Shown one piece after another: positions 8,453-45,330 of a stretch of 45,330 bases of DNA (its first letter is position 1; every line of letters begins with the position of its first letter). Position numbers and translations under genes: made by a program. Source of the stretch: Oceanospirillaceae bacterium (lineage in GTDB: Bacteria; Pseudomonadota; Gammaproteobacteria; Pseudomonadales; Balneatricaceae). The DNA lies in contig JABSRB010000009.1 of the NCBI GenBank assembly GCA_013215375.1, forward strand, positions 1 to 45,330. The letters are read 5' to 3'. The notes under the pieces were generated by a model. That model had not been told where the DNA came from. It ran no database searches and saw only the letters and a list, made by a program, of their open reading frames with translations.

Positions 8453-11400
8453 ATGATTGAATGGTTCACTAAAAATCATGTTGCCGCTAACTTACTCATG
8501 TTAGCTATCATCATTTTAGGGGTTTTCAGCTTGAAAACGCGCATTCCACTCGAAGTTTTCCCAAGCTTTGAGTCCAATGTTATTAGCACTAGTGTTTCCC
8601 TTAGCGGCGCCACCGCCCTTGAAGTGGAGCAAAGTGTCACCCTGCTCATTGAGCAAAAAGTCTCGGATTTAGCCGGCATTGCGAGCATCACTAGCTACTC
8701 TAGTGAAGGGCGCAGTGTGGTCAATATGGAAGTTGATGACAACTATGACAAACGCGATTTACTGGCTGACATTAAAAGCAGGATAGATACCATCAGCGAT
8801 TTCCCCGATGATGCTAACGCTCCCGTTACAGAGTTAAGAACTCGTACCCGCGGTGTTATTAGTGTCAGTATCACAGGAGACATCAGCGAAGCCAAGATAC
8901 ATCGCCTTGGAGAGCAAGTGCGCGATGATATATTACAGCTACCCGGCATTACCCAAGTAGAGCTTGAGCGAGTGCGCAAATATCAAATTAATATTGATGT
9001 AGAGCAACGCCAATTACATCGCTACAACCTTACCTTAGCGGACATAAGCCAGGCGATCAAAAACAGTTCTGTGAACACTTCAGCTGGCAATTTACGCACC
9101 AGCGCTGGGGATATATTAATCAGCACCAATGGCAAAGCCTTTGATATTGATACATTCTCCAATATTGTGGTAAAAACCAATCAAAACGGTGCAACGATAC
9201 GCCTCTCTCAAATAGCCAAAATAGAAAACGGCTTTGAAGAAACACCGTTAAAAGCCCGTTTTAATGGTAAAAATGCCGCCTTGATTGAAGTCTATCGCGT
9301 CGGCGATCAAAGTGCCCTTGAAGTCGCTAACAACGTCAAAGACTACATAGAGGAAACCCGACCAACACTGCCCAAAGGGATTACCATAAGTCACTGGAAT
9401 GACAGCTCTAAAGTGCTTAAAAGCCGCTTAAATACCTTGATTGATAATGCAATCCAAGGCGGTATCTTAGTGCTAGTGATGCTGTCGTTATTCTTGCGCC
9501 CCTCCGTCGCCTTCTTTGTCTTTTTAGGCATCCCTATTAGTTTTATGGGCGCTTTTATCGTGATGCCATTTCTCGGCATCAGCCTCAACATCATTAGCTT
9601 ATTTGGCTTTATCTTAGTGTTAGGTATTGTGGTCGATGACGCTATTGTCACCGGGGAGAACATTTACCGGCATATGCAGGGCGCTGAATCGGGTATCCAA
9701 GCGGCCATTTTTGGCACTAAAGAAGTTGCTGTCGCTGTAACTTTTGGCGTTTTAACCACGGTAGCCGCCTTTTTACCTTTTGCTTTTATTGAAGGGCAGC
9801 GCGGGGCTATCTTTGCACAAATACCCGCCATCGTTATCCCCGTGTTACTTTTCTCGCTGATTGAATCAAAATTTATTTTACCGGCCCATTTAAAGTTTAT
9901 GCGCCTGCGCCAAGGCGATTACAAACCCAATATATTTAGCCGTTTTCAACAGCGCTTCGCCGACGGTTTTGAAAAACTAATTTTAAAACGCTACCAGCCT
10001 CTTCTGATCAAGGCGATACATTATCGCTACAGCGTATTAATTGGCTTTATCTGTATTTTTGCGCTGCTAGTGGTGTTTGTTTCCAGCGGCTGGATGCGCT
10101 TTACCTTCTTTCCTAGGGTACCGAGCGAGGTGGCCAGAGTGACACTGACCATGCAAACCGGTACCCCGTTTGCGGTGACCGATGAACACGTCAAACGCAT
10201 CGTCGAGGCCGCTCAACAGCTACAGCGCAAATACACCAATGAAGATACTGGTGAGAGCGTTATCTTAGATATTTTCTCAACCACCGGATCCAATGGTGGC
10301 GCGTCAAACAAAGGTCGGGTCAGTTTTGAAACCATCGCACCCGATCAGCGCACCGCGCAAGATGCCGATGTCACTATGAATCAGTTAGTCAGCCAATGGC
10401 GAAGAATGATTGGCCCTATTAATGGCGCCACCTCTCTCACCTATCGCGCTGAAATAGGCCGCGGCGGAGATCCGGTCAGCGTTCAGATCAGCGGTAACTC
10501 AACCGCACAAATGCAATTAGCGGCCGCTGATATCCGCGCACAATTAAAACAATACCCCGGTGTGTTTGATATTACCGATAACTTATCTGATGGCAAAGAT
10601 GAGCTGCAATTATCGCTTAAACCTCAGGGCCAATTACTGGGATTGAGCCGTGCCACTTTGATATCTCAAGTGCGTCAGGCTATGCAGGGTATTGAAGTGC
10701 AACACTTTCAACGTGGTCGAGAAGAAGTACCCGTGGTGGTTAGGCTGCCCTTAAATGAGCGCAACTCCATTGCCGATCTGAATAATTTAGAAATCACTGT
10801 CGGTGAGCTGCGCATTCCGCTGTCACAAGTGGCACACCTTAGCATTGTTGCAGGCCCTTCTACCCTTTATCGCACTGACTACTTACGCACTGCCAATGTG
10901 GTTGCTGATATTAACAAAACGGAAGTCAATTCCACGGTACTCAATGCGGACTTAAGAGTGTTTTTAGATCAGCTCAAGCAGGCCAAGTATCCTAAGCTGG
11001 ATTTTAGTTTGCGCGGAGAAGCAAAAGAGCAGCAAGATTCATTTGGCTCATTACAATGGGGACTAGTGTTTGTCTTCTTTGCCATTTATGCATTGCTTGC
11101 CATCCCCTTCCAGTCATTTTTCCAACCACTGATAGTGATGTCAGTGATTCCCTTTGGTGCCATCGGCGCTATCTTTGGACACTGGATCATGGGCATGGAC
11201 CTTACTATTATGAGCCTATTAGGCCTACTGGCGTTAATTGGCGTAGTGGTTAATGACTCTCTGGTACTGGTCTCTTTTGTCAATCAACAAGTAGCGAAAG
11301 GTCTCACGGTTCGTATGGCGGTATTAAGTGCGGGTGTGGCACGATTTAGACCAGTGATACTGACCTCTATCACCACTTTTGCCGGTTTAATGCCGCTACT

Positions 11401-11584
11401 CTTTGAACAGGCCACCCAAGCGCAGTTCTTAATTCCCATGGCGGTGTCTTTAAGTTTTGGAATAGTCTTTGCAACAGTCATTACCTTGTTGCTCATTCCG
11501 GTGAACTATATGATTATTGAAGACATTAAAGCTCTGCTTAACAAGAGGGATAAAAACTCGAGCAAGGAAATGATTGAAGAATAA
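8453..11584 (+). CDS. RND multidrug efflux pump, inner-membrane subunit (AcrB/HAE1 family)
   Basis: A 1043-residue proton-driven RND transporter, the usual length for the AcrB family. TM1 starts at residue 12. The TM4 proton-relay motif GIVVDDAIVTGENIYR near residue 395 retains both acidic residues. The repeat half has GVVVNDSLVLVSFVNQ in TM10. Two large periplasmic porter/docking loops separate TM1-TM2 and TM7-TM8. Substrates cannot be read from sequence. It is the last gene of the operon, with a perfect terminator 16 bases after the stop codon. No TetR, MarR or two-component regulator is adjacent, so control must come from elsewhere. Confidence 0.96.
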   Translation: MIEWFTKNHVAANLLMLAIIILGVFSLKTRIPLEVFPSFESNVISTSVSLSGATALEVEQSVTLLIEQKVSDLAGIASITSYSSEGRSVVNMEVDDNYDKRDLLADIKSRIDTISDFPDDANAPVTELRTRTRGVISVSITGDISEAKIHRLGEQVRDDILQLPGITQVELERVRKYQINIDVEQRQLHRYNLTLADISQAIKNSSVNTSAGNLRTSAGDILISTNGKAFDIDTFSNIVVKTNQNGATIRLSQIAKIENGFEETPLKARFNGKNAALIEVYRVGDQSALEVANNVKDYIEETRPTLPKGITISHWNDSSKVLKSRLNTLIDNAIQGGILVLVMLSLFLRPSVAFFVFLGIPISFMGAFIVMPFLGISLNIISLFGFILVLGIVVDDAIVTGENIYRHMQGAESGIQAAIFGTKEVAVAVTFGVLTTVAAFLPFAFIEGQRGAIFAQIPAIVIPVLLFSLIESKFILPAHLKFMRLRQGDYKPNIFSRFQQRFADGFEKLILKRYQPLLIKAIHYRYSVLIGFICIFALLVVFVSSGWMRFTFFPRVPSEVARVTLTMQTGTPFAVTDEHVKRIVEAAQQLQRKYTNEDTGESVILDIFSTTGSNGGASNKGRVSFETIAPDQRTAQDADVTMNQLVSQWRRMIGPINGATSLTYRAEIGRGGDPVSVQISGNSTAQMQLAAADIRAQLKQYPGVFDITDNLSDGKDELQLSLKPQGQLLGLSRATLISQVRQAMQGIEVQHFQRGREEVPVVVRLPLNERNSIADLNNLEITVGELRIPLSQVAHLSIVAGPSTLYRTDYLRTANVVADINKTEVNSTVLNADLRVFLDQLKQAKYPKLDFSLRGEAKEQQDSFGSLQWGLVFVFFAIYALLAIPFQSFFQPLIVMSVIPFGAIGAIFGHWIMGMDLTIMSLLGLLALIGVVVNDSLVLVSFVNQQVAKGLTVRMAVLSAGVARFRPVILTSITTFAGLMPLLFEQATQAQFLIPMAVSLSFGIVFATVITLLLIPVNYMIIEDIKALLNKRDKNSSKEMIEE

Positions 11585-19941: not shown

Positions 19942-20955
19942 ATGAATCTAAAACAGTTTTCGGAGATTTTAAACTTATCTCAAACAACTGTTTCCAGAGC
20001 ATTAAATGGCTTTCCTGAAGTCAGTGAAAAAACTCGGAACAGAGTACAAAGCGCCGCCATTCAATACAATTACCACCCCAATACCCAGGCAAAGAGCTTA
20101 GCGACCGGTAAATCCATGGCGATAGGTCATGTACTGCCCGTTAATAAACAAGAGATCATAAACCCTATTTTTACTGACTTTATTGCGGGCACTGGCGAGA
20201 TCCTCTCACGCAGCGGCTATCATATGGCTGTGACTGTGGTTGAAGATGAAGGCGAAGAGGCTGCTTATAGAGATATGGCCTCTAAAAAATCTGTCGACGG
20301 GGTGATTCTGCACGGCCCCAGAGAAAACGACAGTCGTATCCCACTGTTACAAGAATTGGGCATCCCCTTTCTTGTACATGGGCGCGCACAGACCACTGAA
20401 ACACCCTACTCTTGGTTTGACGTCAATAACTGTCGTGCCTTTAAAAAGGCCACCGAGTTATTAATTGATCTTGGACACCACAGAATTGCACTACTCAATG
20501 GTTTAGAGTATATGGATTTTGCGGTGAGACGTAGAAGAGGCTATGAGCAGGCGCTTGCACAAGCAGGCATTGAGTTAGATCCCTCAATTATGCGCAGCGA
20601 AGAAATGATGGAGCCCTATGGTTTCTCTGCCACTATGCAAATCATGCAGCAGCCCAACCCCCCTACCGCGTTTTTAGTCTCTTCGGTTATTCCCGCGATG
20701 GGTGTACAAAGAGCACTGTTAAAACTGGGCCTGCAGCCAGCTAAAGATGTTTCTATTGTCATCCACGACGATCAACTTTCTTTTTTACCGGCAGATCTAT
20801 TCACCGCCTCCAGGTCTTCTATCAAAGACGCTGGAAAGCGCTGCGCGCAAATGTTATTAGAACAAATAAAAAACCCGAACGCCCCGCCTTTAACTGAATT
20901 ATGGGAAGCAGAACTCATAATTGGTGAATCCACAGGCCCCGCTAAAAACAAATAA
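19942..20955 (+). CDS. aglR: LacI-family transcriptional regulator of the agl locus
   Basis: A 337-residue LacI/GalR repressor. The N-terminal helix-turn-helix MNLKQFSEILNLSQTTVSRALNG is followed by the hinge region YHPNTQAKSLATGKS, where the hinge helix inserts into the central CG of its operator. The remainder is a periplasmic-binding-protein-like sugar sensor. GGGAGG lies eight bases before the ATG. It is divergent from aglE, with two near-identical palindromes between them, so control of aglEFGAK and itself is the straightforward inference. The inducer is presumably an alpha-glucoside or glucose derivative. AglR of Sinorhizobium has the same placement. A dispersed repeat starts 6 bases after the stop. 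Confidence 0.9.
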   Translation: MNLKQFSEILNLSQTTVSRALNGFPEVSEKTRNRVQSAAIQYNYHPNTQAKSLATGKSMAIGHVLPVNKQEIINPIFTDFIAGTGEILSRSGYHMAVTVVEDEGEEAAYRDMASKKSVDGVILHGPRENDSRIPLLQELGIPFLVHGRAQTTETPYSWFDVNNCRAFKKATELLIDLGHHRIALLNGLEYMDFAVRRRRGYEQALAQAGIELDPSIMRSEEMMEPYGFSATMQIMQQPNPPTAFLVSSVIPAMGVQRALLKLGLQPAKDVSIVIHDDQLSFLPADLFTASRSSIKDAGKRCAQMLLEQIKNPNAPPLTELWEAELIIGESTGPAKNK

Positions 20956-20960
20956 AGAGC

Positions 20961-21097
20961 ACCGGAGCAAGCCCTCTCGCGTCGCGAGCCTTCACTTACG
21001 GATGCCGGGTATTGTTAGTTCTTACAAGCTCACGCGCCAAGGGGCGAGGAAATAAACCCTTGATGATTTAGGCTCCGCCTAATTCATCTCTATTAAA
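20961..21097 (+). repeat. Dispersed intergenic repeat, copy A (long form)
   Basis: A block of about 137 bases shared with copy B at 30213. Shared landmarks are GCAAGCCCTCTCGCGTCGCG followed by AGCCTTCACTTACG, a GTTCTTACAAG motif, AAACCCTTGATGATTTAGG and CCGCCTAATTCATCTC with TATTAAA. Internal dyads are CTCGCG-T-CGCGAG, an outer CCGG/CCGG pair, CGCC-AAGG-GGCG, and TTAGGC-TCC-GCCTAA. It lies between aglR and the GH1 gene and contains no ORF. Confidence 0.85.
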
Positions 21098-21122
21098 CAT
21101 ATAACAGACACTTGGATTAAAC

Positions 21123-22487
21123 ATGACTTTTAAGCTAGATTCCAACTCGAAGCTGATGCAGCCAGAATTTACTTTTGGTGTAGCCACTGCGGCCTTCCAG
21201 ATTGAAGGCGCAAACACCACGGATAACCGCTGCCCTTCTATTTGGGACACTTTTTGTGCACAACCAGGCAAAGTTTTGGGTGGGGACGACGGCTCTGTCG
21301 CCTGTGACCATTACAATCTATGGCTTGAGGATATTGACATGATTGAGTCTCTAGGCGTTGATGCCTATAGACTATCTATTGCATGGCCAAGAATTATCAG
21401 CGATATCGACGGAACCGTTAATGCTAAGGGCCTCGCTTTCTACGATAAAATCATCGACGAACTTAATCGCCGAAATATCAAAGTGTTTGTCACTCTCTAT
21501 CACTGGGATCTACCACAGTATTTAGAAGATCAAGGTGGCTGGTTAAGCCGAGACACTGTCAGCGCATTTGTCAAATATGCGCAGGTTATTAGCGAGCATT
21601 TTCAGGACAGAATTTATTCTTACGCTACTTTTAATGAGCCTTGGTGTAGTGCCTATTTAGGTTACCAATACGGTGTTCACGCCCCAGGACATACCTCTCG
21701 TAAAGAGGGATTACAAGCAGCTCACCACTTGTTACTCGCTCATGGTTTGGGTGTGGAAGAAATCCGCAAACACACCACAGCAGCTCAAGTGGGTATTGTA
21801 TTAAATTTCACACCAGGCTACAGCGCCACACAGAGCGTGGAAGACATTCGCGCCACACAAATATACAACGACTACAACAGCCACTGGTATATTCAACCGC
21901 TTATGCAAGGGAGCTACCCTGAATCCATTCAAGTGTTATATCCAAGCGAGATGCCAAGCATCGAAGCGGGCGATATGCAGGCCATTAACACCCCTATTGA
22001 TTTCTTAGGCATTAATTTTTATACCCGCTACGTGGTTGAAGCACCTGGTGCTGATTGCATTGAAGACTTTCAACAAGTTTCTCAACAACACACTGGAGCG
22101 GAGCACACCCATATTGGCTGGGAAATTCACGCCCCTGCGCTATATCGTTTACTTACTGAACTGAATCAACGTTATGCACTACCTCCCATTTACATCACAG
22201 AGAATGGTGCGGCTTGCGATGATCATTTAATTGATGGCGAAGTGAATGACTTACAACGCTGTCACTACCTTCAACAACACCTGCAGATGGTGGACAAAGC
22301 AATTGTTGATGGAGTGGATATCAGAGGGTATTTTGCCTGGAGCTTAATGGATAACTTTGAATGGGCTGAGGGGTATTCAAAACGCTTTGGACTAGTACAC
22401 GTTGACTACTCTACGCAAAAAAGAACGCTTAAAAAGAGCGCGCTTAATTTCAAAGCTCTATTGAATTCACGCTCTCACATTGCCTAG
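21123..22487 (+). CDS. Beta-glucosidase, GH1 family
   Basis: A cytoplasmic retaining beta-glycosidase of 454 residues. It has the N-terminal signature FTFGVATAAFQIEGA (16-30), the acid/base motif TFNEPW with Glu172, and the nucleophile motif YITENGA with Glu360. The aglycone-side SWSLMDNFEWAEGYSKRFG motif (here AWSLMDNFEW) is conserved near the C-terminus. No signal peptide is present, so its substrate must be imported, possibly by the neighbouring transporter or as a disaccharide. It is downstream of aglR on the same strand but separated by repeat copy A; no own promoter is obvious. A beta-glucosidase beside an alpha-glucoside operon suggests a broader glucoside module. Confidence 0.93.
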   Translation: MTFKLDSNSKLMQPEFTFGVATAAFQIEGANTTDNRCPSIWDTFCAQPGKVLGGDDGSVACDHYNLWLEDIDMIESLGVDAYRLSIAWPRIISDIDGTVNAKGLAFYDKIIDELNRRNIKVFVTLYHWDLPQYLEDQGGWLSRDTVSAFVKYAQVISEHFQDRIYSYATFNEPWCSAYLGYQYGVHAPGHTSRKEGLQAAHHLLLAHGLGVEEIRKHTTAAQVGIVLNFTPGYSATQSVEDIRATQIYNDYNSHWYIQPLMQGSYPESIQVLYPSEMPSIEAGDMQAINTPIDFLGINFYTRYVVEAPGADCIEDFQQVSQQHTGAEHTHIGWEIHAPALYRLLTELNQRYALPPIYITENGAACDDHLIDGEVNDLQRCHYLQQHLQMVDKAIVDGVDIRGYFAWSLMDNFEWAEGYSKRFGLVHVDYSTQKRTLKKSALNFKALLNSRSHIA

Positions 22488-22491
22488 CGAT

Positions 22492-22518
22492 AGTGCCCTC
22501 CCAGAAGGGATGAGCACT
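22492..22518. terminator. Stem-loop between the converging GH1 and PAS/GGDEF genes
   Basis: AGTGC at 22492-22496 pairs with GCACT at 22514-22518, and an inner CTCCC/GGGA pair tightens the structure. It lies in the 53-base gap between two converging stop codons. No T-run, so only a possible bidirectional terminator. Confidence 0.35.
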
Positions 22519-22540
22519 GATTGATAAGTATCAACCCAAG

Positions 22541-23455
22541 CTAGCCTTTAGCAAACTGCTCGGGTTTAAAGACGATCGTTGGACAATGGCTAGTAATCTT
22601 CGATTCTGTAGATGTCTTAGCTTTGTCTAGCGCCATGGTCGCTGCATTAAACAGCATATCCGAATGATCGATCAAGGTGGGTGTAGTTGAGGAAAACCCA
22701 ATGTTAATATTTATTTGCGAACCGTCATGACCCTGCAAATTTAATAGTGATATTTCATTATAAATATCACTGGCAATCATATCGCAGGAAATATTGCTAA
22801 TCTGCCCTAACACTAATGCAAATTGATTATCTTTTAAGACACAAGCTAGATCACAAGCTCGTCGAGCATGGCTAGAGAATACTTCAGCGACTAAGTAGCT
22901 ATCTTGATCATTTGTAGGCACTGCATCTAACTGCGATACCAACAACCCAACGGGAGAGCGACTGCGCATAGATCGCTGCCATTCATTTTCATAAAAAGCT
23001 TTGAACCCTTTAACATTGGCCAGCCCGGTATCTGGGTCTTGCAAGGTTAATGATTGTATTTCTTCGTCGGCATTTTTACGTTCAATGACATTGGTGTGAT
23101 TGAGCAGCACATAGCGGGTTTGATTGTATTCAATCAAATTCGCGGTAAGTTTTAGCCATACTTTTTCATCGAGTGTACTGCTGGGAAACTCTATGACAAA
23201 TTCATTTTTAGCACCCTGTAACATCGCTTCAAACTCACGCTGATAATCCGCTTTAAATCTTTTTGAATCTATTTGCAGTATAGAGCAACAATCAAAATAA
23301 CTTTTCCCCAGCCAAGAAACGTCAGTACTTGAACCCAGCTCAACCGCCAGATCCACCCATGCTTGATTGGTATAGGTGATTTTTCCTTCATCATTCACCA
23401 TTACAATGTATGCATCGAGAGTATCTAAAATGTTTCTATAAATTTGATCAATCAT
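22541..23455 (-). CDS. PAS domain protein with a degenerate GGDEF domain
   Basis: The first 130 residues are a PAS sensor domain (ILDTLDAYIVMVNDEGKITYTNQAW, then a PAC-like segment ending LLNHTNVIERKNADEEI). The rest aligns with GGDEF diguanylate cyclase domains: LTLQDPDTGLANVKGFKAFYENEW is the usual entry (compare DxLTGLxNRRxF). The catalytic GG(D/E)EF loop is replaced by KDNQFALVL, so cyclase activity is not expected; a GTP- or protein-binding role remains possible. I start it at ATG 23453-23455, preceded by CAGG; a TTG at 23473 would add six residues. No membrane segment is present. It stands alone. Confidence 0.8.
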   Translation of the reverse strand: MIDQIYRNILDTLDAYIVMVNDEGKITYTNQAWVDLAVELGSSTDVSWLGKSYFDCCSILQIDSKRFKADYQREFEAMLQGAKNEFVIEFPSSTLDEKVWLKLTANLIEYNQTRYVLLNHTNVIERKNADEEIQSLTLQDPDTGLANVKGFKAFYENEWQRSMRSRSPVGLLVSQLDAVPTNDQDSYLVAEVFSSHARRACDLACVLKDNQFALVLGQISNISCDMIASDIYNEISLLNLQGHDGSQININIGFSSTTPTLIDHSDMLFNAATMALDKAKTSTESKITSHCPTIVFKPEQFAKG

Positions 23456-23854
23456 AGCTGCCTGGCCACCCAATAAAATATTTGTCCTTTATATTGGTAT
23501 AGCACAGCATTTTAGTTAAGCAAGGCCTCTTATGAAATATAGGAATATTGATTATAAATATCTAATTATTATCCCGTATTAAGCTAGTTAATATATTAAT
23601 AGATTTTCTAAATATAAATATATTTTTCAGTAAGTGAATTAATTTATTTAAATAAAACAATAATATTGCTAATACAAACCAACAAAAGCGGGCTATTATT
23701 AACAATAAATAAACTTAATATTAACTTGTCATTTAAGAAGAACATCCATCTTAAAAATTAACGACGACCAGGTTATCGTATTTAATTAATGGGGTCATTG
23801 AAGAGATCATATTTCTAGGATCTCTATTAATAAAACCCGGTAGGCCTTTCATTT

Positions 23855-23943
23855 AAACTCCCCGGGCGACAGCGCGAGCCTTCAGCTTAAGAAACGGGGA
23901 GCTTACCTTAATTATTTAGGCTTCGCCTAATTTACCTCTTTGT
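23855..23943 (+). repeat. Dispersed intergenic repeat, copy C (short form)
   Basis: A shorter, more diverged relative of copies A and B. It has an outer CTCCCC/GGGGAG stem (near 23858 and 23896), the shared GCGAGCCTTCA segment, and the 3' module ATTTAGGCTTCGCCTAATTT. The middle of about 60-70 bases present in A and B is missing. It sits in the 525-base stretch 23456-23980 between the PAS/GGDEF gene and sppA. The rest of that stretch is very AT-rich; a 7-bp dyad AGAGATC/GATCTCT lies at 23802-23825. I see no gene there. Confidence 0.7.
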
Positions 23944-23980
23944 AAAAATGAATTATCTGCGTTATTACCAACGCTCTATA

Positions 23981-25000
23981 TCATTCTAAACGCAGTCCTT
24001 TAGACAAACCAATGCGAGTAGCAAGCTCCCCTGCAAACGACACCCCAAGCCTGTCTATCACTTCTTGTATAGGTGATAGCCCAGGTGAGTAGTCCCAGAG
24101 CTTTTCAACTCCAACAATTTCTCTAGCCACATAACTGGCACTGCCTAAACCATCTATCAAGCCGTTTTCCAACGCTTGCTCTCCTGTCCATATAAGCCCG
24201 GAAAACAACTCATCAGAACCTTTCAAACGATCGCCACGCCCTTTCTTTACCTGCGCGATAAATTGCTTGTGGGTGGTTGCTAGTACTGATTGCCAAAAAG
24301 TGCGATCCGTTTCTTTAAGCGGACTAAAGGGATCTAAGAAGGTCTTGTTTTCTCCAGAGGACAGTGCGCGACGCTCCACACCTAATTTTTCCATGAGTCC
24401 AACAAAGCCAAAACCCGCTGAAATAACACCAATAGAACCCACTAAACTCGCCTTATCCGCATAGATATAATCAGCGGCTGAAGCAATATAATATGCACCA
24501 CTTGCCCCTATATCTGTAATAACAGCATAGAGTTTCTTTTCTGGGTAAATGGCACGCAAGCGTATGATTTCATCGTACACATAACCTGATTGCACGGGTG
24601 AGCCACCTGGGCTGTTAATTCTCATAATAACGGCTTGAGTCTGTTTGGCCTCAAATGCGCGCCTCAGGCTACCCACCAAGATATCTGCACTCGCATCACT
24701 GTCAGCGGAGATAGGGCCTACTAATTCAATAATGGCCGTATGCGGTTCTGAATCATCTGAAATCCCCCCAATGCCTTGTTGGCTTATAAAGTAAAAGCCC
24801 AATAATGCAAATAAATACATAAAGGTCAAAGACTTAAAAAATATCCCCCATCGACGCGCCTTTCGTTGTTCACTAAACAAGCCATTAACTAAGTTTTCAA
24901 TTAGCCGCCATTCGCGGCCATTACTTTTGCCACTTTTAACGCTATCAACAGCCTCACTCGCTTGTGTCTGCTGCTTATCATCCCAGGGATCATTACTCAC
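23981..25000 (-). CDS. sppA: Signal peptide peptidase SppA, short form (S49 family)
   Basis: An inner-membrane serine protease that degrades cleaved signal peptides. The 339-residue length is that of the single-domain 36K type rather than the duplicated E. coli enzyme. A cytoplasmic hydrophilic N-terminus is followed by a TM helix (about residues 52-73) and the S49 domain. Serine nucleophile Ser167 lies in DIGASGAYYIASAAD, and general-base Lys219 lies in SGENK; their spacing of 52 residues equals that of Ser147/Lys199 in the Bacillus enzyme. Its ATG overlaps the stop of the upstream HAD gene (ATGA type), so the two are translationally coupled. Confidence 0.93.
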   Translation of the reverse strand: MSNDPWDDKQQTQASEAVDSVKSGKSNGREWRLIENLVNGLFSEQRKARRWGIFFKSLTFMYLFALLGFYFISQQGIGGISDDSEPHTAIIELVGPISADSDASADILVGSLRRAFEAKQTQAVIMRINSPGGSPVQSGYVYDEIIRLRAIYPEKKLYAVITDIGASGAYYIASAADYIYADKASLVGSIGVISAGFGFVGLMEKLGVERRALSSGENKTFLDPFSPLKETDRTFWQSVLATTHKQFIAQVKKGRGDRLKGSDELFSGLIWTGEQALENGLIDGLGSASYVAREIVGVEKLWDYSPGLSPIQEVIDRLGVSFAGELATRIGLSKGLRLE

Positions 25001-25650
25001 TTACTCTCTCCATCAAGCCATTCTTCTATTTGTAAAAATTTATCTGCCACCATGACAGGGTTGTATTTTTTAAGCCGCTCAACACTGTGCATGCCATAGC
25101 TCACTGCAATACTAGGCATACCTATTCGCTGCGCCATTTCTAAATCATAACTGGTATCTCCAACCATTACAGCTTGAGTTATGCTTACACCCACAGCCTC
25201 AATAATTTGAGTTAACATTAGAGGATCTGGTTTAGATTTCGCTTCATCAGCACCACGGGTAATATCGAACATCCCCCCAAGGCTTGCCTCTGCTAATACC
25301 CTATCTAACCCCCTTCTACTTTTCCCGGTTGCGACTGCCAACATATAGCCCTTGTTTTTTAAACGCATAAGAGACTCTAGTACGTCTGGATAAAAAGGAG
25401 TGGCGGTCTTATCTATTTGGGAATATTGGTGCGAATACTGTTGTTGCAATAACTTGTTATTCGCAGCACTGATCCCCGGAATAATAATCTTATTAGCTTG
25501 CTCTAACGACAAGCCAATAATATTACGGATAGCTTCTTTACTTGGTACCGATAAAGACAATGCCTTAGCTGCGCGCTGCATACTAGAGACTATTCGATCA
25601 GACGAGTCCATCAAGGTTCCATCCCAATCAAAAATCAATAACTTAAACAT
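24997..25650 (-). CDS. HAD-family phosphatase (Gph-like)
   Basis: A haloacid-dehalogenase-type hydrolase of 217 residues from ATG 25648-25650; a TTG six bases earlier is less likely. Motif I is DWDGT (Asp8 nucleophile, Asp10 acid), motif II is VATGKS, motif III is the Lys in KSKPDP, and motif IV is MVGDTSYDLEMAQ. The helical cap between motifs I and II is of the phosphoglycolate phosphatase type. The substrate is uncertain. In Pseudomonas a HAD gene lies between rluC and sppA in a rne-rluC-HAD-sppA block, and this gene with sppA corresponds to that pair, now about 10 kb away from rluC. Confidence 0.88.
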   Translation of the reverse strand: MFKLLIFDWDGTLMDSSDRIVSSMQRAAKALSLSVPSKEAIRNIIGLSLEQANKIIIPGISAANNKLLQQQYSHQYSQIDKTATPFYPDVLESLMRLKNKGYMLAVATGKSRRGLDRVLAEASLGGMFDITRGADEAKSKPDPLMLTQIIEAVGVSITQAVMVGDTSYDLEMAQRIGMPSIAVSYGMHSVERLKKYNPVMVADKFLQIEEWLDGESK

Positions 25651-25826
25651 TAACAATTCTCTTCATATATATTATTAAGACACATATTATGACCTAAACA
25701 ATTGGTAAATATTGAATTTATTTTGATTTCGCTTTAAGATCTAAAACATATTCTTATTATATAAATAATAATTGGATAGAAAAACTATTAAATAATTAAA
25801 TTCGCTATATACCGTGGAAATTTCAC

Positions 25827-27068
25827 ATGCCGGCTCGACAAAATTTCAAAAAACAAACTCTAATGGCCCGCCAACCAATTTTCAATGAAAAAATTGAAAC
25901 TGTCGCATACGAGTTATTATATCGCTCCGATAAAAATAATAATCAGGCGGTATTCGATTTTTCTGGTTCTTTAGCCACCATCAATGTACTACTTAATTCT
26001 TTTACCTCTATTTACCAAAATAAAAAGCTAAAACGTTTACCTGCTTTTATTAACTTAACTTATGACCTGATTGTTAATAATACCTTACCTAAGCTTCCCA
26101 CCAGCCAAATAGTTTTAGAAATATTAGAGGATGTCGAGGTAACAGACGAGCTCATAAACAGCGTGAAGTCTCTCAGAAACAAAGGTTACACTATTGCCCT
26201 CGATGATTTCATCTATGACGACAAATTTATCCCACTACTCAAGCTTGCGCATATTATCAAAGTCGACGTATTAGAAATGAGCTTAGATGAAGTCACAGAG
26301 CAGGTCGAGAAATTAAAAGATTACAAAGTCTCACTGCTCGCAGAAAAAATAGAAACCCACGAGATGCTCGAACACTGTAAATCATTGGGGTTTAAGTTAT
26401 TCCAAGGCTATTTTTTGTCTAAGCCTGAAATAGTAGAAGGTAGTACTACCGACCCTTCGCAAACCAAAATACTAAACATCATTCAAGCGCTGCAGAATCC
26501 AAATATTAGTGTTCCTCAAATTGAAAAAATCATCCTCCAAGACCCTGTATTTACTTTCAAATTATTACGTATCGTTAATTCAAGCGCCAATAACTTAGTG
26601 CGAGACATAAACTCGCTCAGCGAGGCTATCAATATTTTAGGGATTCCTGAAGTAAAAAAATGGGCACTGATCATTGCCATGATATCCAGTGACAACAAAT
26701 CTGAGGAACTCTCTAGACAGTTATTAATAAGAGGGCGAATGTGCGAAAAGGTCGCTATCGCCAGTGGTATCAAAAACACTACGGGCTATATGATAGCAGG
26801 CATGATTTCAGGCGCAAATGCGTTACTTGATATAGAAATGACTGAGCTGCTATCCCAAATCCCACTGAGCAAAGAAATAAAAACAGCCATTGTCGATGGT
26901 CATGGAGAGATGGGGAAAATCCTACAAAACACCATTAATTTCGGTAGAGGTAACTGGAGTGAAATATCCAGTGATATAGATGATGAAATGTACGGCAGCG
27001 CCTATCGAGAAAGCCTTCACTGGGTAACTGATTCTATGACGGCCATTGACCAAACAAGCACCGTCTAA
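25827..27068 (+). CDS. EAL-HDOD signalling protein with a degenerate EAL domain (YuxH/CdgJ-like)
   Basis: A 413-residue cytoplasmic protein. Residues 12-200 form an EAL-like domain starting MARQPIFNEKIETVAYELLYRS; the EAL motif reads ELL. The metal-binding DDFGxGYSS motif is reduced to DDFIYDDKF, although KVDVLE, AEKIET and FQGYFLSKP remain. Phosphodiesterase activity on cyclic di-GMP is therefore doubtful. Residues 205-400 form an HDOD domain (QDPVFTFKLLRIVNSSANN, INILGIPEVKKW), which is often a protein-interaction module in motility and stress signalling. In Vibrio CdgJ this architecture affects motility. It is monocistronic, with an AT-rich upstream region and a terminator-like stem-loop behind it. 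Confidence 0.88.
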   Translation: MPARQNFKKQTLMARQPIFNEKIETVAYELLYRSDKNNNQAVFDFSGSLATINVLLNSFTSIYQNKKLKRLPAFINLTYDLIVNNTLPKLPTSQIVLEILEDVEVTDELINSVKSLRNKGYTIALDDFIYDDKFIPLLKLAHIIKVDVLEMSLDEVTEQVEKLKDYKVSLLAEKIETHEMLEHCKSLGFKLFQGYFLSKPEIVEGSTTDPSQTKILNIIQALQNPNISVPQIEKIILQDPVFTFKLLRIVNSSANNLVRDINSLSEAINILGIPEVKKWALIIAMISSDNKSEELSRQLLIRGRMCEKVAIASGIKNTTGYMIAGMISGANALLDIEMTELLSQIPLSKEIKTAIVDGHGEMGKILQNTINFGRGNWSEISSDIDDEMYGSAYRESLHWVTDSMTAIDQTSTV

Positions 27069-27096
27069 ACTGACAGAATAATCAATATGCGATAAC

Positions 27097-27126
27097 AACG
27101 GCGCATTCTCATACGCCGTTATTTTC
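27097..27126. terminator. Stem-loop between the converging EAL-HDOD and vgrG genes
   Basis: AACGGCG at 27097-27103 pairs with CGCCGTT at 27114-27120, and ATTTTCCTCTT follows. It is the probable terminator of the EAL-HDOD gene. Confidence 0.55.
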
Positions 27127-27170
27127 CTCTTAAAAATCCTTTAAAAAACGGGCCTCACCATATTTGGTCA

Positions 27171-29435
27171 TTATGCTTTAGCGGCGGCAGCGGCTTCACA
27201 TTGGGCACAAAATGGCACACCCGCTTTAGACGCTGCAAACATGGACTTAGCCTGCGGACTATATTCAGATACTTCACGGGGCTTGGACTTATCAGTGGCT
27301 GAGGTCACTGCACCCGCTTGGCCATTATCGGCAATGGCAGCAACTACAAATTCAGCAGGAACATTCGGATTAGCTGGCGCACTAGGTGCTGCACTTCTCG
27401 CAGAACCGGCACTACCTCCACTATTAAGATTAACCGCACCCCCTTTAATATTAACGGTGCCACCACCCACGATATTAATAGTGCTTCCGGAAATAGATAC
27501 GCCTGAAGGCCCAATAGTAATGAAACTTCCACCCGCTTTTATAGTAATACTATTACCAGCATCCAAGACCAAGGTCTGCCCTGCTTTCACATGAATCTCT
27601 TGGCCTACTTTGATTGATTGCTTTGTGCCAATTTCAATATTTTGCGCACTGGCCACCTTTAAATGATCATCACCGTTTATACGCATAACATGCTGATCAG
27701 CCACCGTGTAATGCTCACTGCCCTGCGTCTCTTGAATTAAATCAGATTTGTACAACCTATCGGTATTGCCCTCAACTTCAATGATCTCGTCGCCAACGGT
27801 CTTCCCATAAAAGCTGCCTTGAATCTCTTCGTGAGAGTTGTTTATGGTCATCTGATGACGGTCATGACCTATCCAATCTCGGTAGTCATTCTTAATTCGC
27901 ACGTCCATGTCTTTCTCGGCGTGCATAAAGATTTGTTCCTCGCCCTTTTTATCCTCAATGCGAAACTCATTAAAACCCTTTCCGCCTTTACTCGAATTGG
28001 TTTTAATGGTGCTTCTGGTCTTATGTTTCGGCAATTGATAAGGCGGTCGGTTAACCCCATGATAAACTCGACCTATAACAATGGGCATGTCTGGGTTACC
28101 GTTAAGGAAGTCCACCACGACCTCTTCACCTATACGCGGCAAAAAGAACCCACCAAAGCCTTCGCCGGCTGCTGGCTGACTCACACGAATCCAGCAAGAG
28201 CTGTCTTGGTTACTTAAGCCTTCTCTATCCCAGTGAAATTGCACTTTGATTCGACCAAATTCATCGGTGTAAAGCTCTTCGCCATCCGGCCCCGTGACTG
28301 TTGCCGTTTGTGTACCATTAATAATAGGCCTTAGTGTATCGCGACCAGGCCTGAAAGGCGTCGCAAACGGGATGCACCTAAAGGTATTGTTATACTGAGT
28401 ACCTTCATCTGTCGCCCCCACCTCAAGCACTTGAGTTTGCACGCAAACATGCTCAACATCCGTAATTAAGTATTCGCTATTTAATTTACCGACCTCATGC
28501 CCTGCCAAATTAAAACTGTAGCCTGGATTAAGTGTATTAACATCACTGGCGCCAGTGGCACTCAATTTAAAGCTGTTTAATGCTTGCAGGCGTATGTTGG
28601 CATAATTTTTACCTTGCCCCGCCTCTTTAAACAAACCTGGATAATCATAAACTTCTAAATCGACACTCTCTTGTGCCTCAATTATTTCTTCTAACTTCAG
28701 TTTAGGTTTCTTGAAATCGTAATCGCGAAGCGTTACTTTTCCTGACTTTACCGCTTGGATGTATCTAAAATCAAAAATATGCTGCTCTCGAACTTCCCCT
28801 TGAGAATCATAGAAATACTCAATAGCACCCTCGCGCTCAAGCTGTGGGTTTGTGGTGGAGGTATCACTCATAACCAGTACATGCATGTCTTGGGTATGCT
28901 CAAAGAAATAATGGATGCCTTCATCTTCAAGCAATCTGGCGATAAACTGCATATCAGTTTCCTGATATTGAACACAGTAGTCTCTAGGGGCGAGGCTGGC
29001 ACTAAGCTCAAAACGGAATTCATCGCTATTTAGGCCTGCCTCCTCTAGCATAGTAGTGACTATTTCTTCGACACTTAAAAACTGAAAGATGCGGCTATTT
29101 TGTCGATAAGTCAACGGCCATATTTTAGGAACTACCGTGACATAATAGGTACTTTGAGAAATGCCCAACTGACCAATTTCAATTTGGCTGACAATCCCGT
29201 GTGCATAGCGTATTTGATCTTGATCACCGTTATTGCCATCTAAAAGAGTGATGACCGCCGCTTTATCGATTAACTCTTCAATATTCAACTCGCCGTTTTC
29301 ACAGACAACCTCAACATTAAATTGAAATAACTTAGAAATTCCCTCTTTACCTTCCATTCTCACTAAATGGAATTGGGCGTCAGAATCCAGAACTTCAAGG
29401 AAAAATCGCTCAACGTTAGCACCCATAAAACTCAT
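27171..29435 (-). CDS. Type VI secretion tip protein VgrG (orphan)
   Basis: A 754-residue VgrG/Rhs-core spike subunit. Residues 1-380 are the gp27-like base (FQFNVEVVCENGELNIEELIDK, CVQYQETDMQFIARLLEDEGIHYFFEH). The gp5 OB-fold follows near 385-470 (DEFGRIKVQFHWDREG, then GFGGFFLPRIGEEVVVDFLNGNPDMPIVIGRVYH). A beta-helix of DUF2345/gp5 repeats runs to about 690 (SIKVGQEIHVKAGQTLVL and similar). The last 60 residues are Ser/Ala/Pro-rich, ending in a CxxC (FCAQC) and an Ala-rich tail; this is too small for an effector domain and could be an adaptor or PAAR docking tail. The ribosome site AAGGATAGAG precedes the ATG. No Hcp, PAAR, DUF4123 adaptor, effector, immunity or T6SS structural gene is nearby, so it must serve a machine encoded elsewhere or be a remnant. 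Confidence 0.93.
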   Translation of the reverse strand: MSFMGANVERFFLEVLDSDAQFHLVRMEGKEGISKLFQFNVEVVCENGELNIEELIDKAAVITLLDGNNGDQDQIRYAHGIVSQIEIGQLGISQSTYYVTVVPKIWPLTYRQNSRIFQFLSVEEIVTTMLEEAGLNSDEFRFELSASLAPRDYCVQYQETDMQFIARLLEDEGIHYFFEHTQDMHVLVMSDTSTTNPQLEREGAIEYFYDSQGEVREQHIFDFRYIQAVKSGKVTLRDYDFKKPKLKLEEIIEAQESVDLEVYDYPGLFKEAGQGKNYANIRLQALNSFKLSATGASDVNTLNPGYSFNLAGHEVGKLNSEYLITDVEHVCVQTQVLEVGATDEGTQYNNTFRCIPFATPFRPGRDTLRPIINGTQTATVTGPDGEELYTDEFGRIKVQFHWDREGLSNQDSSCWIRVSQPAAGEGFGGFFLPRIGEEVVVDFLNGNPDMPIVIGRVYHGVNRPPYQLPKHKTRSTIKTNSSKGGKGFNEFRIEDKKGEEQIFMHAEKDMDVRIKNDYRDWIGHDRHQMTINNSHEEIQGSFYGKTVGDEIIEVEGNTDRLYKSDLIQETQGSEHYTVADQHVMRINGDDHLKVASAQNIEIGTKQSIKVGQEIHVKAGQTLVLDAGNSITIKAGGSFITIGPSGVSISGSTINIVGGGTVNIKGGAVNLNSGGSAGSARSAAPSAPANPNVPAEFVVAAIADNGQAGAVTSATDKSKPREVSEYSPQAKSMFAASKAGVPFCAQCEAAAAAKA

Positions 29436-29896
29436 ATATCTCTATCCTTTTAAACTAAGCTGTTGTCCATAATAATTGCTTGGCATAAACGCACTCAACG
29501 TGAGACTCACTCACTTTCATACATTAAACCTGAATATAAATACCAATATCCACTAAACGACTAGTAACAGAACCAATCTGTGTAGTCCTGCTTGATGCTC
29601 TGACTCCACTCGCTAATTAAGTGAGCGGATCTATAAGGCAATCATGTACTTATCTTATATTCATGTGCGCCGATAATAGCACAATATATAAGCGATGAAA
29701 GATGTGAGATAGATAAAAAGGACTTTTAGGCATTATTCCAGCGAAGACTCATATATATTTCTTTACTATTATAACTATAAGATTTTGTTAACTTTTAACC
29801 TAGATGAATGCTTGTATTTTGCATTGTATGGCGATAGCCACTAGATTGTTTAGCAATGCCCTAGATAAGGGCGCAGCTAAACGTTACTTATTTTCG
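29436..29896. other. Gene-free stretch between vgrG and the enoyl-CoA hydratase pseudogene
   Basis: About 460 AT-rich bases upstream of vgrG. No supported ORF or RNA gene was seen. An imperfect dyad (CCACTCGCT with AGTGAGCGG, near 29607-29629) is the only structure noticed. The vgrG promoter presumably lies here but could not be fixed. Confidence 0.4.
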
Positions 29897-30755
29897 CTAA
29901 CCTTTATTAACGCCCTTTAAACTCTCCCGGACGTTTTGCATAAAGACACTAACACCTTCCGCAAAATCTTCGCTATTACCCAAACGCTGCATTGTCACGC
30001 GCTCTTTTCTAATTGTTGATGTAACGATTTATCAAAACTCGTATTGATTAATGCTTTAGTGGCAGCGAGCGCTAATGGCGGCTTGGCTGCAAGCACTTTG
30101 GCCAAGCTCATTGCGTCCAAGAGTAACTCTTCACTGCTACTAAGCTGCGTATCATGTGCCAGTTCGCACCTGAATCAGGCATCAAGCCCACAGCGCAAAA
30201 TGCAAAAATATAGATCCCCAGGGCAAGCCCTCTCGCGTCGCGAGCCTTCACTTACGATTCCGGGGTATTCCTAGTTACTTTTGGTTCTTACAAGTTCGCG
30301 CCCCAAGGGGCTGGGAATTAAACCCTTGATGATTTAGGTTCCGCCTAATTCATCTCTATTAAAGGAAGCCATATCCGCGGCAACGATAAAGTCACAGGTC
30401 ATAGCCAAAGAAGCACCAGCGCCAGCAGCAATACCATTTAGCGCACAGATAACAGGTTTGTCCTATGCACTGATTTTACGAATCAAAGGGTTATAATTAC
30501 ACTCCAGTGAATCACCAAGAGCAGCGGGTCCACTATCAATATTCAGCGCTTCGTCACTTAAATATTGCCCGGCGCAAAAGCCTCGTCCCGCGCCTGTGAT
30601 AACAACGCAGCGCACGGCATCATCTCCGGCTACACCTTTAAAAGCATGCGCTAGCTCACTGTGCATCTGTTCGTTAAAGCTATTGAGTTTGTCTGGACGG
30701 TTTAAGGTGATGCAAGTGATGCTATCTGCTGTTTTTATTTGAATACTGTGTACAT
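29897..30755 (-). pseudogene. Decayed enoyl-CoA hydratase/isomerase gene (PaaG-like)
   Basis: Conserved crotonase-family segments are spread over three frames on the minus strand. In order they are ITLNRPDKLNSFNEQMH, VITGAGRGFCAGQYLSDEA, NYNPLIRKIS, then after an in-frame TAG (30470 region) KPVICALNGIAAGAGASLAM and IVAADMASF. Repeat copy B then interrupts the gene. Beyond it come FAFCAVGLMPDSG, a loss of about 40-50 codons, LAAKPPLALAATKALINTSF, a frameshift at GCGTGA, and MQRLGNSEDFAEGVSVFMQN, with a TAG stop at 29897-29899. The start region is also out of frame. The GRGFCAGQ and RNYNPLIR-like motifs are closest to PaaG, the phenylacetate-pathway isomerase. No other paa gene is present. Confidence 0.85.
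30213..30364 (+). repeat. Dispersed intergenic repeat, copy B (long form), inside a pseudogene
   Basis: About 150 bases closely matching copy A, including GGCAAGCCCTCTCGCGTCGC, AGCCTTCACTTACGATTCCG, GGTTCTTACAAG, AAACCCTTGATGATTTAGG and CCGCCTAATTCATCTC plus TATTAAA. The outer stem is TCCCC/GGGG and an inner hairpin GCCC-CAAG-GGGC replaces CGCC-AAGG-GGCG of copy A, so pairing is kept although bases differ. Its ends, TATAGAT and (reverse complement) TAATAGAGAT, are weakly similar. It separates two coding segments of the crotonase pseudogene, which shows that the element moves or was inserted. Confidence 0.88.
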
Positions 30756-33537: not shown

Positions 33538-33560
33538 TAGACGCATAACCCGAACCCGAG

Positions 33561-33644
33561 CTTTTAGCTTTTAGCTTTTAGCTTTTAGCTTTTAGCTCGT
33601 AGCTCGTAGCTCGTAGCTCGTAGCTCGTAGCTCGTAGCTCGTAA
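33561..33644. repeat. Heptanucleotide tandem array, two unit types
   Basis: Five perfect copies of CTTTTAG are followed without interruption by seven copies of CTCGTAG, the last ending in A. The total is 12 units and 84 bases. It lies in the 119-base gap between the converging ends of the threonine aldolase and cysB genes. The two unit types differ at positions 3 and 4 (TT or CG), so a mixed array probably arose by expansion of each variant after one mutation. Confidence 0.95.
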
Positions 33645-33656
33645 CCAATCATTTCT

Positions 33657-45226: not shown

Positions 45227-45230
45227 TGCT

Positions 45231-45260
45231 TTAATCAAGATCAATTAGGCGGAGTCTAAA
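45231..45260 (-). repeat. Possible core-only copy D of the dispersed repeat
   Basis: On the minus strand this reads ATTTAGACTCCGCCTAATTG then ATCTTGATTA. That resembles the 3' module ATTTAGGCTCCGCCTAATTC then ATCTCTATTA of copies A and B (few mismatches in 30 bases). The other parts of the repeat are absent or beyond the sequence end. Confidence 0.5.
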
Positions 45261-45283
45261 TTTTCAAAGGTTAATGTCCTGTC

Positions 45284-45330
45284 CTTTTTTTTTTTGGGGG
45301 GGGGGGGTGTGTTTTGTTGGGGGTTTTTTT
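45284..45330. other. Homopolymer run at the contig end, probable sequencing or assembly artefact
   Basis: Twelve T residues are followed by 12 G residues, then T/G-only sequence to the last base. This composition occurs nowhere else in the window and carries no coding or regulatory signal. Confidence 0.8.

What the first reader, a model, noticed from the sequence alone, without database searches (positions are those of the whole stretch)
20961..30364. A modular dispersed intergenic repeat family with conserved secondary structure
Copies at 20961-21097 and 30213-30364 match along about 140-150 bases; a shorter one is at 23855-23943 and a possible core at 45231-45260. All carry a TTAGGC-N3-GCCTAA-like core, and the first three have a GC-rich stem around GCGAGCCTTCA. 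Differences between copies preserve pairing (CCGG, CCCC/GGGG and CTCCCC/GGGGAG outer stems; CGCC-AAGG-GGCG versus GCCC-CAAG-GGGC). There is no ORF. Modular loss of the middle in copy C suggests the two ends are functional units. It could be a MITE, a REP/BIME-like element mobilised by a RAYT-type transposase, or a structured RNA or regulatory cassette. I know of no named family that it fits.
Basis: partly seen in the sequence, partly recalled or inferred. Interest (0 to 1): 0.75.

Follow-up and report, generated by a model that had tools for sequence, protein, structure and literature searches.

The report
Non-coding IS200/IS605-derived mobile repeat family
The repeats are short, gene-less mobile DNA elements whose ends match those of IS200/IS605 jumping genes; they have spread to well over a hundred places in this marine bacterium, although no matching transposase gene was found in its genome.

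Summary
The repeats are real: a covariance model gives 141 matches in the 5.0-Mb own genome. Among 116 genomes of the family it matches the own genome, two others of the same genus, and one weak place in another genus. Full copies are about 157 bp, with sharp ends and no detectable target-site duplication. They are intergenic, with no gene-orientation bias.

Read on the other strand, the element has the end architecture of IS200/IS605 transposons without tnpA: TTYAAT, then GGGTTTAATTCCCCGCC-CCTT-GGGGCG at the left; AATACCCCGC...GGGG...TTTATT at the right. Elements with a tnpA in Pantoea, Pseudanabaena, Edwardsiella, Megaera and two genomes of the same order have both ends. A tnpA-less Dongshaea plasmid element is intermediate. 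A matrix from four left ends hits 36 sites in 624 kb of own genome; 33 lie in the repeats, all in the predicted orientation.

It is therefore a PATE (palindrome-associated transposable element), presumably moved in trans by a Y1/HUH TnpA not found here. An extra TTAGGC-N3-GCCTAA palindrome in the left end and many left-end-module copies set it apart. RAYT-driven REP, DDE MITE and regulatory RNA are poorly supported.

The parts
20951..21097 (-). Copy A, 147 bp, element with both ends and a 10-bp internal deletion; strand given is the IS200/IS605 (tnpA) orientation, so the left end (LE) is at 21097 and the right end (RE) at 20951
   Evidence: R1 match model 1-157, 168 bits; alignment A1
21092..21097 (-). 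Copy A: TTTAAT, presumed left cleavage/target hexamer
   Evidence: sequence; TTYAAT conserved at this place in 38 full copies
21062..21088 (-). Copy A: extra LE palindrome GATGAATTAGGC-GGA-GCCTAAATCATC
   Evidence: sequence; 95.4% of cells paired in 26 copies, no covariation
21033..21059 (-). Copy A: IS200/IS605-type LE core (GGGTTTATTTCCTCGCCCCTTGGCGCG)
   Evidence: 22.4 bits with a matrix from four IS200/IS605 left ends
20951..21013 (-). Copy A: RE region ending in TTTATT at 20951
   Evidence: the same region of sister copies L003 and L090 matches Dongshaea and Piscirickettsia plasmids
30207..30363 (-). Copy B, 157 bp, complete element, LE at 30363, RE at 30207
   Evidence: R1 match model 1-157, 188.7 bits
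30358..30363 (-). Copy B: TTTAAT, presumed left cleavage/target hexamer
   Evidence: sequence
30299..30325 (-). Copy B: IS200/IS605-type LE core (GGGTTTAATTCCCAGCCCCTTGGGGCG)
   Evidence: 28.9 bits
23855..23945 (-). Copy C, old core-deleted copy (LE and RE fused at CCCCG, read by eye), LE at 23945
   Evidence: R1 match 23889-23945, 23.6 bits; same kind of fusion as L035, L038, L040
45230..45330 (+). Copy D, old decayed copy on the other strand, LE at 45230; continues beyond the window (contig position 45393) across a run of N
   Evidence: R1 match G000:C89:45230-45393 minus, 34.2 bits

Best explanation
The family is a set of non-autonomous IS200/IS605 derivatives (PATEs). Each full copy is the left end and right end of an IS200/IS605-type transposon with a few tens of base pairs and no gene between them. 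Inferred working: a Y1/HUH single-strand transposase (TnpA) supplied in trans binds the subterminal hairpins, cuts after TTYAAT at the left and after TTTA(T/A)T at the right, excises a single-stranded circle and inserts it 3' of a TTYAAT target without target duplication. Shown here: the ends, their match to elements that carry tnpA, sharp boundaries, no detectable duplication, two tandem joints sharing one hexamer, absence at site A in two relatives, core-deleted forms. Inferred: the enzyme, its loss from this genome, and single-strand transposition itself. The family gained a second palindrome (TTAGGC-N3-GCCTAA) in its left end and produced many copies that keep only the left-end module or fused ends.
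For: (1) LE and RE of the flipped element match IS200/IS605 elements in Pantoea and Pseudanabaena (tnpA annotated), Edwardsiella (tnpA found by tblastn in two pieces, not annotated), Megaera, and G236 and G123 of the same order. (2) A matrix from four LE cores (Pseudanabaena, Pantoea, Edwardsiella, Piscirickettsia) gives 36 hits of 14 bits or more in 624,305 bases of own genome; 33 lie in the repeats (2.3% of the bases), all 33 on the predicted strand; one simulated sequence of equal size gives 4. (3) Dongshaea marina's plasmid holds an element without tnpA, with the standard LE and this family's long RE: a G113 copy is 87.5% identical over 64 bp, E 5e-13; the family consensus scores 102 against at most 31 in 1000 shuffles. 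(4) 38 full copies: sharp ends, weakly conserved flanks, no target duplication at any tested offset. (5) Two tandem joints share one TTTA(A/T)T hexamer, as insertion into a copy's own target would give. (6) Three copies have the core deleted between the CCCCGC of LE and the CCCCGC of RE. (7) The LE hairpin shows compensatory changes across 12 sequences of 8 organisms, covariation 0.467 against 0.118, 0 of 500 shuffles. (8) Site A is empty in G113 and G114. (9) Read by eye: 9 of 9 elements ending TTTATT (this family and Dongshaea included) have AATA before the RE stem, 3 of 3 ending TTCATT have GATA; three Piscirickettsia elements and Caballeronia could not be assigned, and one Megaera tnpA with other ends was left out. 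This fits guide/cleavage-site pairing.
Against: No cognate TnpA in the own genome, G113 or G114, so the link is by ends only; the assembly is 95% complete. No tnpA-bearing element with the extra TTAGGC palindrome was found. No base-exact empty site: relatives are about 70-77% identical, and at site A G111 has 246 unrelated bases and G112 could not be resolved. The two ends share a short inverted similarity (AWTARAGAT), which IS200/IS605 elements and PATEs do not normally have. Two Megaera copies share only AAT, not a hexamer, before the element, so a hexamer target may not be general. Other tandem copies (C38, C41, C1 near 77 kb, C3 near 40 kb) did not meet the joint pattern searched, and the C3 one is a partial duplication that hexamer sharing does not explain. 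For G478 (L285) no matching LE was seen in the 260 bases shown, and the Nitrosomonas LE differs.
Confidence: 0.9

Rival explanations
1. REP/BIME (REPIN) elements moved by a RAYT (TnpA-REP) encoded in the genome.
For: Intergenic palindromes in high copy, a T-T mismatch in the hairpin (by eye), two Y1 transposases in the own genome, one scoring 67.5 bits on the REP-associated transposase model. RAYT-sized Y1 genes occur in G000, G113 and G114, the three genomes of the genus with the repeat; G110 has IS200-type hits and G111, G112, G115 have none.
Against: That score is under the curated cut-off of 80 (only one of the two proteins was scanned). Each gene has its own inverted repeats, different for the two genes, and no LE or RE of this family is on their contig. 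No GTAG or CGTC tag. No preference for convergent or tandem gaps, unlike REPs in PMC3733652.
Confidence: 0.03
2. A classical MITE moved by a DDE transposase through the short inverted ends AWTARAGAT.
For: Nine-base inverted similarity of the ends, sharp boundaries.
Against: No target duplication of 2-10 bases at any tested offset. Among 1158 ORFs near the 141 matches, none of the 27 recurring clusters looks like a transposase by eye (no profile search was run on them). The IS200/IS605 end match explains the ends.
Confidence: 0.04
3. A structured regulatory RNA or attenuator cassette kept for its function at each site.
For: Fold z-scores -2.39 and -2.17 for the two strands of one copy (L003); copy C has only -1.11 and -0.84.
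Against: No Rfam match at the gathering score in the window and one chance-level match outside any copy in three loci; no covariation among sibling copies; both orientations used and no preference for a gene arrangement; decay from 1.3 to 29.3% divergence.
Confidence: 0.03

Closest known systems
PATEs of Haloquadratum walsbyi (PMC3119063, passages read)
   Same: No gene, palindromes near both ends, no target duplication, ends like IS605-type transposons, core deletions between near-terminal palindromes giving terminal-only copies, near-terminal palindromes hit by small mobile repeats, copies present although intact TnpA is scarce or missing.
   Different: Bacterial host; ends of a different IS200/IS605 subgroup (inferred); an extra TTAGGC-N3-GCCTAA palindrome in the left end; a short inverted similarity of the two ends.
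IS200/IS605 elements with TnpA like WP_044243850.1 (Pantoea pDSJ05), Pseudanabaena pPSE7367.01, G236 and G123 of the same order
   Same: LE TTNAAT...GGGT/GAGT..ATTCCCCGC hairpin, RE AATACCCCGC or GATACCCCGC (AATACTCCG in G236)..GCGGGG...TTTATT or TTCATT
   Different: They carry tnpA; no TTAGGC palindrome; RE hairpin is simple, not extended.
Dongshaea marina plasmid NZ_CP028898.1 33772-33926 and Piscirickettsia salmonis plasmid elements
   Same: No tnpA between the ends; RE related (80-88% over about 56-64 bp)
   Different: Standard LE without the TTAGGC palindrome; few copies per plasmid seen.
GTAG/CGTC REPs and REPINs with RAYTs (PMC3733652: abstract, one section and passages read)
   Same: Short intergenic palindromes, related HUH enzymes
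   Different: No GTAG or CGTC tag, defined two-ended unit, no RAYT carrying this repeat found.

Membership tests
PATE (palindrome-associated transposable element) | Too short to encode a transposase | tested here: met
   Full copies about 157 bp
PATE (palindrome-associated transposable element) | Palindromes close to both ends | tested here: met
   LE and RE palindromes
PATE (palindrome-associated transposable element) | No target duplication | tested here: met
   38 copies, no clear excess over permuted pairs; no base-exact empty site
PATE (palindrome-associated transposable element) | Ends similar to IS605-type transposons that carry a transposase gene | tested here: met
PATE (palindrome-associated transposable element) | No terminal inverted repeats | tested here: inconclusive
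   AWTARAGAT / AATAGAGAT inverted similarity at the ends
PATE (palindrome-associated transposable element) | Mobilised by a TnpA in trans | not testable with these tools
   No cognate TnpA found in the genome
IS200/IS605 recognition rules | Fixed cleavage sequences at both ends, insertion 3' of the left one | tested here: inconclusive
   TTYAAT and TTTAWT conserved and two tandem joints share one hexamer; insertion polarity is inferred
REP/REPIN with RAYT | GTAG or CGTC tag beside the palindrome | tested here: not met
   alignment A1
REP/REPIN with RAYT | RAYT gene flanked by the repeat | tested here: not met
   (own genome)
Classical DDE MITE | Target-site duplication | tested here: not met
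Structured RNA family | Match to a described family or covariation among copies | tested here: not met

The most novel reading that the evidence does not exclude
The TTAGGC-N3-GCCTAA palindrome is a separate small mobile hairpin that entered the left end of the IS200/IS605 derivative, and also a 141-bp MITE-like repeat of this genome, and now spreads with or without the rest of the element. About half of the matches carry little more than the left-end module (67 of 141 do not span the model). In the MITE-like repeat the hairpin is present in six older copies and one young one (L140) and absent from six other young copies; whether it was gained or lost there is open.
Probability: 0.15. Interest if true: 0.6.

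Novelty: new variant of a known kind. Interest (0 to 1): 0.45.

Why it matters
It shows a large bacterial expansion of ends-only IS200/IS605 derivatives with no cognate transposase found in the genome. A similar puzzle, PATEs that moved while the transposases are broken, was reported for Haloquadratum (PMC3119063, passages read). A second mobile repeat that inserts into their hairpins is a parallel to the SMR-A elements there. The end rules (TTYAAT / TTTAWT) make trans-mobilisation testable in vitro with a TnpA from a harmless cyanobacterium.

Tried and rejected
RAYT/REPtron link: rejected; the presence pattern in the genus looked like a link until the genes' own inverted repeats were seen. 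DDE MITE with duplication: rejected. IS91-type rolling circle: considered because an IS91 transposase lies near the Dongshaea copy and one Y2 gene is in the own genome; dropped when the IS200/IS605 ends were found; IS91 ends were not compared. Regulatory RNA: rejected. Autonomous copy near the repeats: no candidate among flanking ORF clusters, judged by eye; left ends without a right end within 260 bp were explained by insertions or decay, not by a gene (by eye). Phages: no match; viral contigs: no match to a strict pattern. Left out of A4: Edwardsiella (identical to Pantoea) and Megaera, Kovacikia, Chroococcidiopsis and Nitrosomonas (length or sequence differences). Literature: only two searches used the word Colwellia, and their listings showed no report of this family; searches were on REPs, MITEs, BOX elements and PATEs. 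They cover open PMC papers only. PMC6006769 was seen as abstract and outline only; other listed papers as listings only.
Full report
The observation. The window (own genome G000, contig C89:1-45330) holds two copies of a repeat with both ends, A at 20951-21097 and B at 30207-30363, an old core-deleted copy C at about 23855-23945, and an old copy D that starts at 45230 and leaves the window. Blastn with copy A gives 52 matched pieces in G000. A covariance model built from 26 near-full copies (A1) gives 141 matches at E up to 1 (150 of 1362 candidates were scored, so this may be a lower bound). At least two pairs of these are one palindrome read on both strands, and copies split by insertions count twice. 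Of the 141, 74 span the model. Divergence from the consensus runs from 1.3 to 29.3% in the 63 model-spanning matches of 50 bits or more (a few interrupted copies are among them), so there are young and old copies.

Distribution. In the own family (116 genomes, stricter filters, at most 25 candidates scored per genome) the model matches G000, G113, G114 and, at E 0.0025, one place in G047. In a search of three genomes, G113 has 34 matches and G114 has 2 at one place. G110, G111, G112 and G115 of the same genus have none. The palindrome TTAGGC-N3-GCCTAA occurs 55 times in G000, 6 in G113 and at most 2 in each of the other 114; read backwards it occurs once in G000. A strict pattern scan of genome contigs gave one contig, from Colwellia sp. 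ALOHA_DT_125; it aligns to a G000 stretch with 3126 identities, 1 mismatch and 21 gap positions. The rest of that genome has no other match, so the contig is probably mis-binned from a relative of G000. That the organism is a Colwellia is an inference.

Anatomy. In 38 full copies (85 bits or more, five interrupted ones dropped) conservation starts and stops abruptly: left A-W-T-A-A-A-G, right C-T-C-T-A-T-T-R-A-A, with flanks at most weakly biased (T at 19 of 38 just outside the right side). No target duplication of 2-10 bases exceeds permuted pairs by more than 4 copies at any offset. With a home-made gene caller, of 141 matches 138 lie between genes, 2 at contig edges and 1 inside an ORF. Of the 138, 86 lie in tandem gaps (38 co, 48 anti), 22 in convergent and 30 in divergent ones; all gaps of 60 bases or more in the same loci number 186, 48 and 78. 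There is no clear strand or arrangement preference.

What it is. A blastn search of plasmids showed relatives of one end in Dongshaea marina and Piscirickettsia salmonis. Searches with those and with a G113 copy also hit the other end in Pantoea, Pseudanabaena and Edwardsiella plasmids. In Pseudanabaena it lies just upstream of an annotated IS200/IS605 tnpA. In Pantoea a DNA adenine methylase gene lies between it and the annotated tnpA. In Edwardsiella another ORF lies between, and the tnpA is unannotated and matched in two pieces. Read in the tnpA orientation, those elements have LE TTTAATC..GGGTCTAATTCCCCGCCGCTTGCGGCG and RE AATACCCCGCTGCTTGCGGCGGGG..TTTATT (one base differs in the Pantoea RE). 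The repeat, flipped, reads TTYAAT-AGAGATGAATTAGGC-N3-GCCTAAATCATC-AAGGGTTTAATTCCCCGCCCCTTGGGGCG...GGAATACCCCGC...CCCCGGGGATCTTTATT. The Dongshaea element has no tnpA between its ends, the standard LE and the long RE of this family. Alignment scores of the consensus are 102 (Dongshaea) and 90 (Piscirickettsia) against maxima of 31 and 37 in 1000 shuffles.

Controls. A matrix from four LE cores (Pseudanabaena, Pantoea, Edwardsiella, Piscirickettsia), scanned over 624,305 held bases of G000, gives 36 hits at 14 bits or more; 33 are in the repeats, which make up 2.3% of those bases, and all 33 are on the predicted strand; one Markov-simulated sequence of the same size gives 4. The held bases were chosen around the repeats, but 97.7% of them are not repeat. 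In the same order, a TnpA 61-72% identical to the Pantoea one occurs in 3 of 390 genomes at E up to 1e-25. G236 has LE TTTAAT and RE TTTATT, G123 has TTGAAT and TTCATT. The RE was seen in all three genomes, the LE in G236 and G123 only.

Signs of mechanism. Two tandem copies join through a single TTTAAT or TTTATT hexamer, which is what insertion 3' of a left cleavage site would give when the target is an older copy. Other tandem copies (C38, C41, C1, C3) did not meet that pattern. Three copies (L035, L038, L040) are fused between the CCCCGC of LE and RE. Some shorter copies of about 75 bp have one hairpin between the left palindrome and a right-end-like TTGATT. Of 12 elements read by eye, the 9 ending TTTATT have AATA before the RE stem and the 3 ending TTCATT have GATA; three Piscirickettsia elements and Caballeronia could not be assigned, and one Megaera tnpA with other ends was left out. 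Site A has 172 (against G113) and 170 (against G114) bases between the matched gene ends in G000, but 27 in G113 and 33 in G114; G111 has 246 bases without a model match and G112 could not be resolved. In four of the 28 relatives' loci compared, the flanks of a G113 copy match the flanks of a G000 copy at 82-97%, so some insertions are probably older than their split; these were not aligned base by base.

Structure. Among sibling copies no helix set shows covariation beyond shuffles, and RNAalifold predicts no pair for 34 more diverged copies. Between lineages the LE hairpin does covary: 12 real sequences from 8 organisms, 8 doubly changed cells against 1.9, score 0.467 against 0.118, none of 500 shuffles as high. 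I chose the rows, and related rows count more than once. The pattern fits a hairpin that matters in the source element and decays in dead copies.

Transposase. The own genome has two Y1 transposases by PF01797, both on C66. Each has its own inverted repeats, no end of this family is on the contig, and the one scanned is under the cut-off of the REP-associated model. No TnpA of the Pantoea type is in G000, G113 or G114 at E up to 1e-10; 19 of 116 family genomes have a match, the best of the genus being 35% identical in G110. No recurring ORF cluster beside the copies looks like a transposase by eye. The enzyme is therefore inferred, and either lost, plasmid-borne or in the missing 5% of the assembly.

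Comparison. PATEs were named in Haloquadratum walsbyi: no gene, near-terminal palindromes, no target duplication, IS605-like ends, core deletions, and insertion of small mobile repeats into the palindromes (PMC3119063, passages read). One PATE-like sequence is reported in the bacterium Halanaerobium (PMC7290912, passages read). The present family meets those features except for a short inverted similarity of the ends. It differs by the extra left-end palindrome and by the number of left-end-module copies. REPs differ by tag and by RAYT association (PMC3733652, abstract, one section and passages read). The IS200/IS605 mechanism (hairpin binding, insertion 3' of a short target without duplication) is taken from the passages of PMC7290912 and PMC3119063 and from general knowledge.

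Judgement. Ordinary in kind, well supported, with two unusual points: a large expansion without a visible transposase, and the added palindrome shared with a second repeat family.

Noticed in passing
L029:1368-1508, L114:3291-3431, L165:829-968, L023:1284-1424, L034:2094-2234, L036:2071-2234, L140:2429-2601 (own genome): A second repeat, about 141 bp with ends GGAGGGTGTCGCAAAAG, sits inside a copy of this family in five of the seven places listed and inside a similar palindrome in a sixth (L165); loci were fetched around the family, so the fraction is biased. Six older copies and L140 contain the TTAGGC palindrome. Resembles SMR-A repeats attacking PATEs.
   Followed up: partly
window 30050-30500: Copy B lies between what read by eye as two parts of an enoyl-CoA hydratase gene on the minus strand; between the same two matched pieces G112 has 206 bases and G000 has 269 including the 157-bp element, so host sequence seems to be missing.
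   Followed up: partly
window 45280-45330: Runs of T and G at the window's end border a run of N in the contig (L193); looks like an assembly artefact.
   Followed up: no
L042 (JALJPA010000328.1) and L007: A 3950-bp contig of the Colwellia sp. ALOHA_DT_125 MAG is nearly identical to G000 and carries that MAG's only copy; probably mis-binned.
   Followed up: partly
L105:7800-8640 and 10660-11570 (G000 contig C66): Two Y1 transposase genes, each with its own inverted repeats (ATCAATGGGGTCAGAGTAAATTGAT and AATGGATTCAGGTCTTGCC types); like the TIR-flanked Y1 genes in PMC3733652.
   Followed up: partly
L254:926-2540 (Pantoea pDSJ05) and L284:949-1945 (Edwardsiella plasmid): IS200/IS605-type ends seem to enclose a passenger gene before tnpA: a DNA adenine methylase in Pantoea, a hypothetical protein in Edwardsiella.
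   Followed up: no
L175:2501-2660 (G000:C38:27294-27451): Left-end palindromes repeated in tandem with a terminator-like hairpin and T run between them.
   Followed up: no
window 33559-33649: Tandem 7-base repeat AGCTTTT changing to AGCTCGT between two genes.
   Followed up: no
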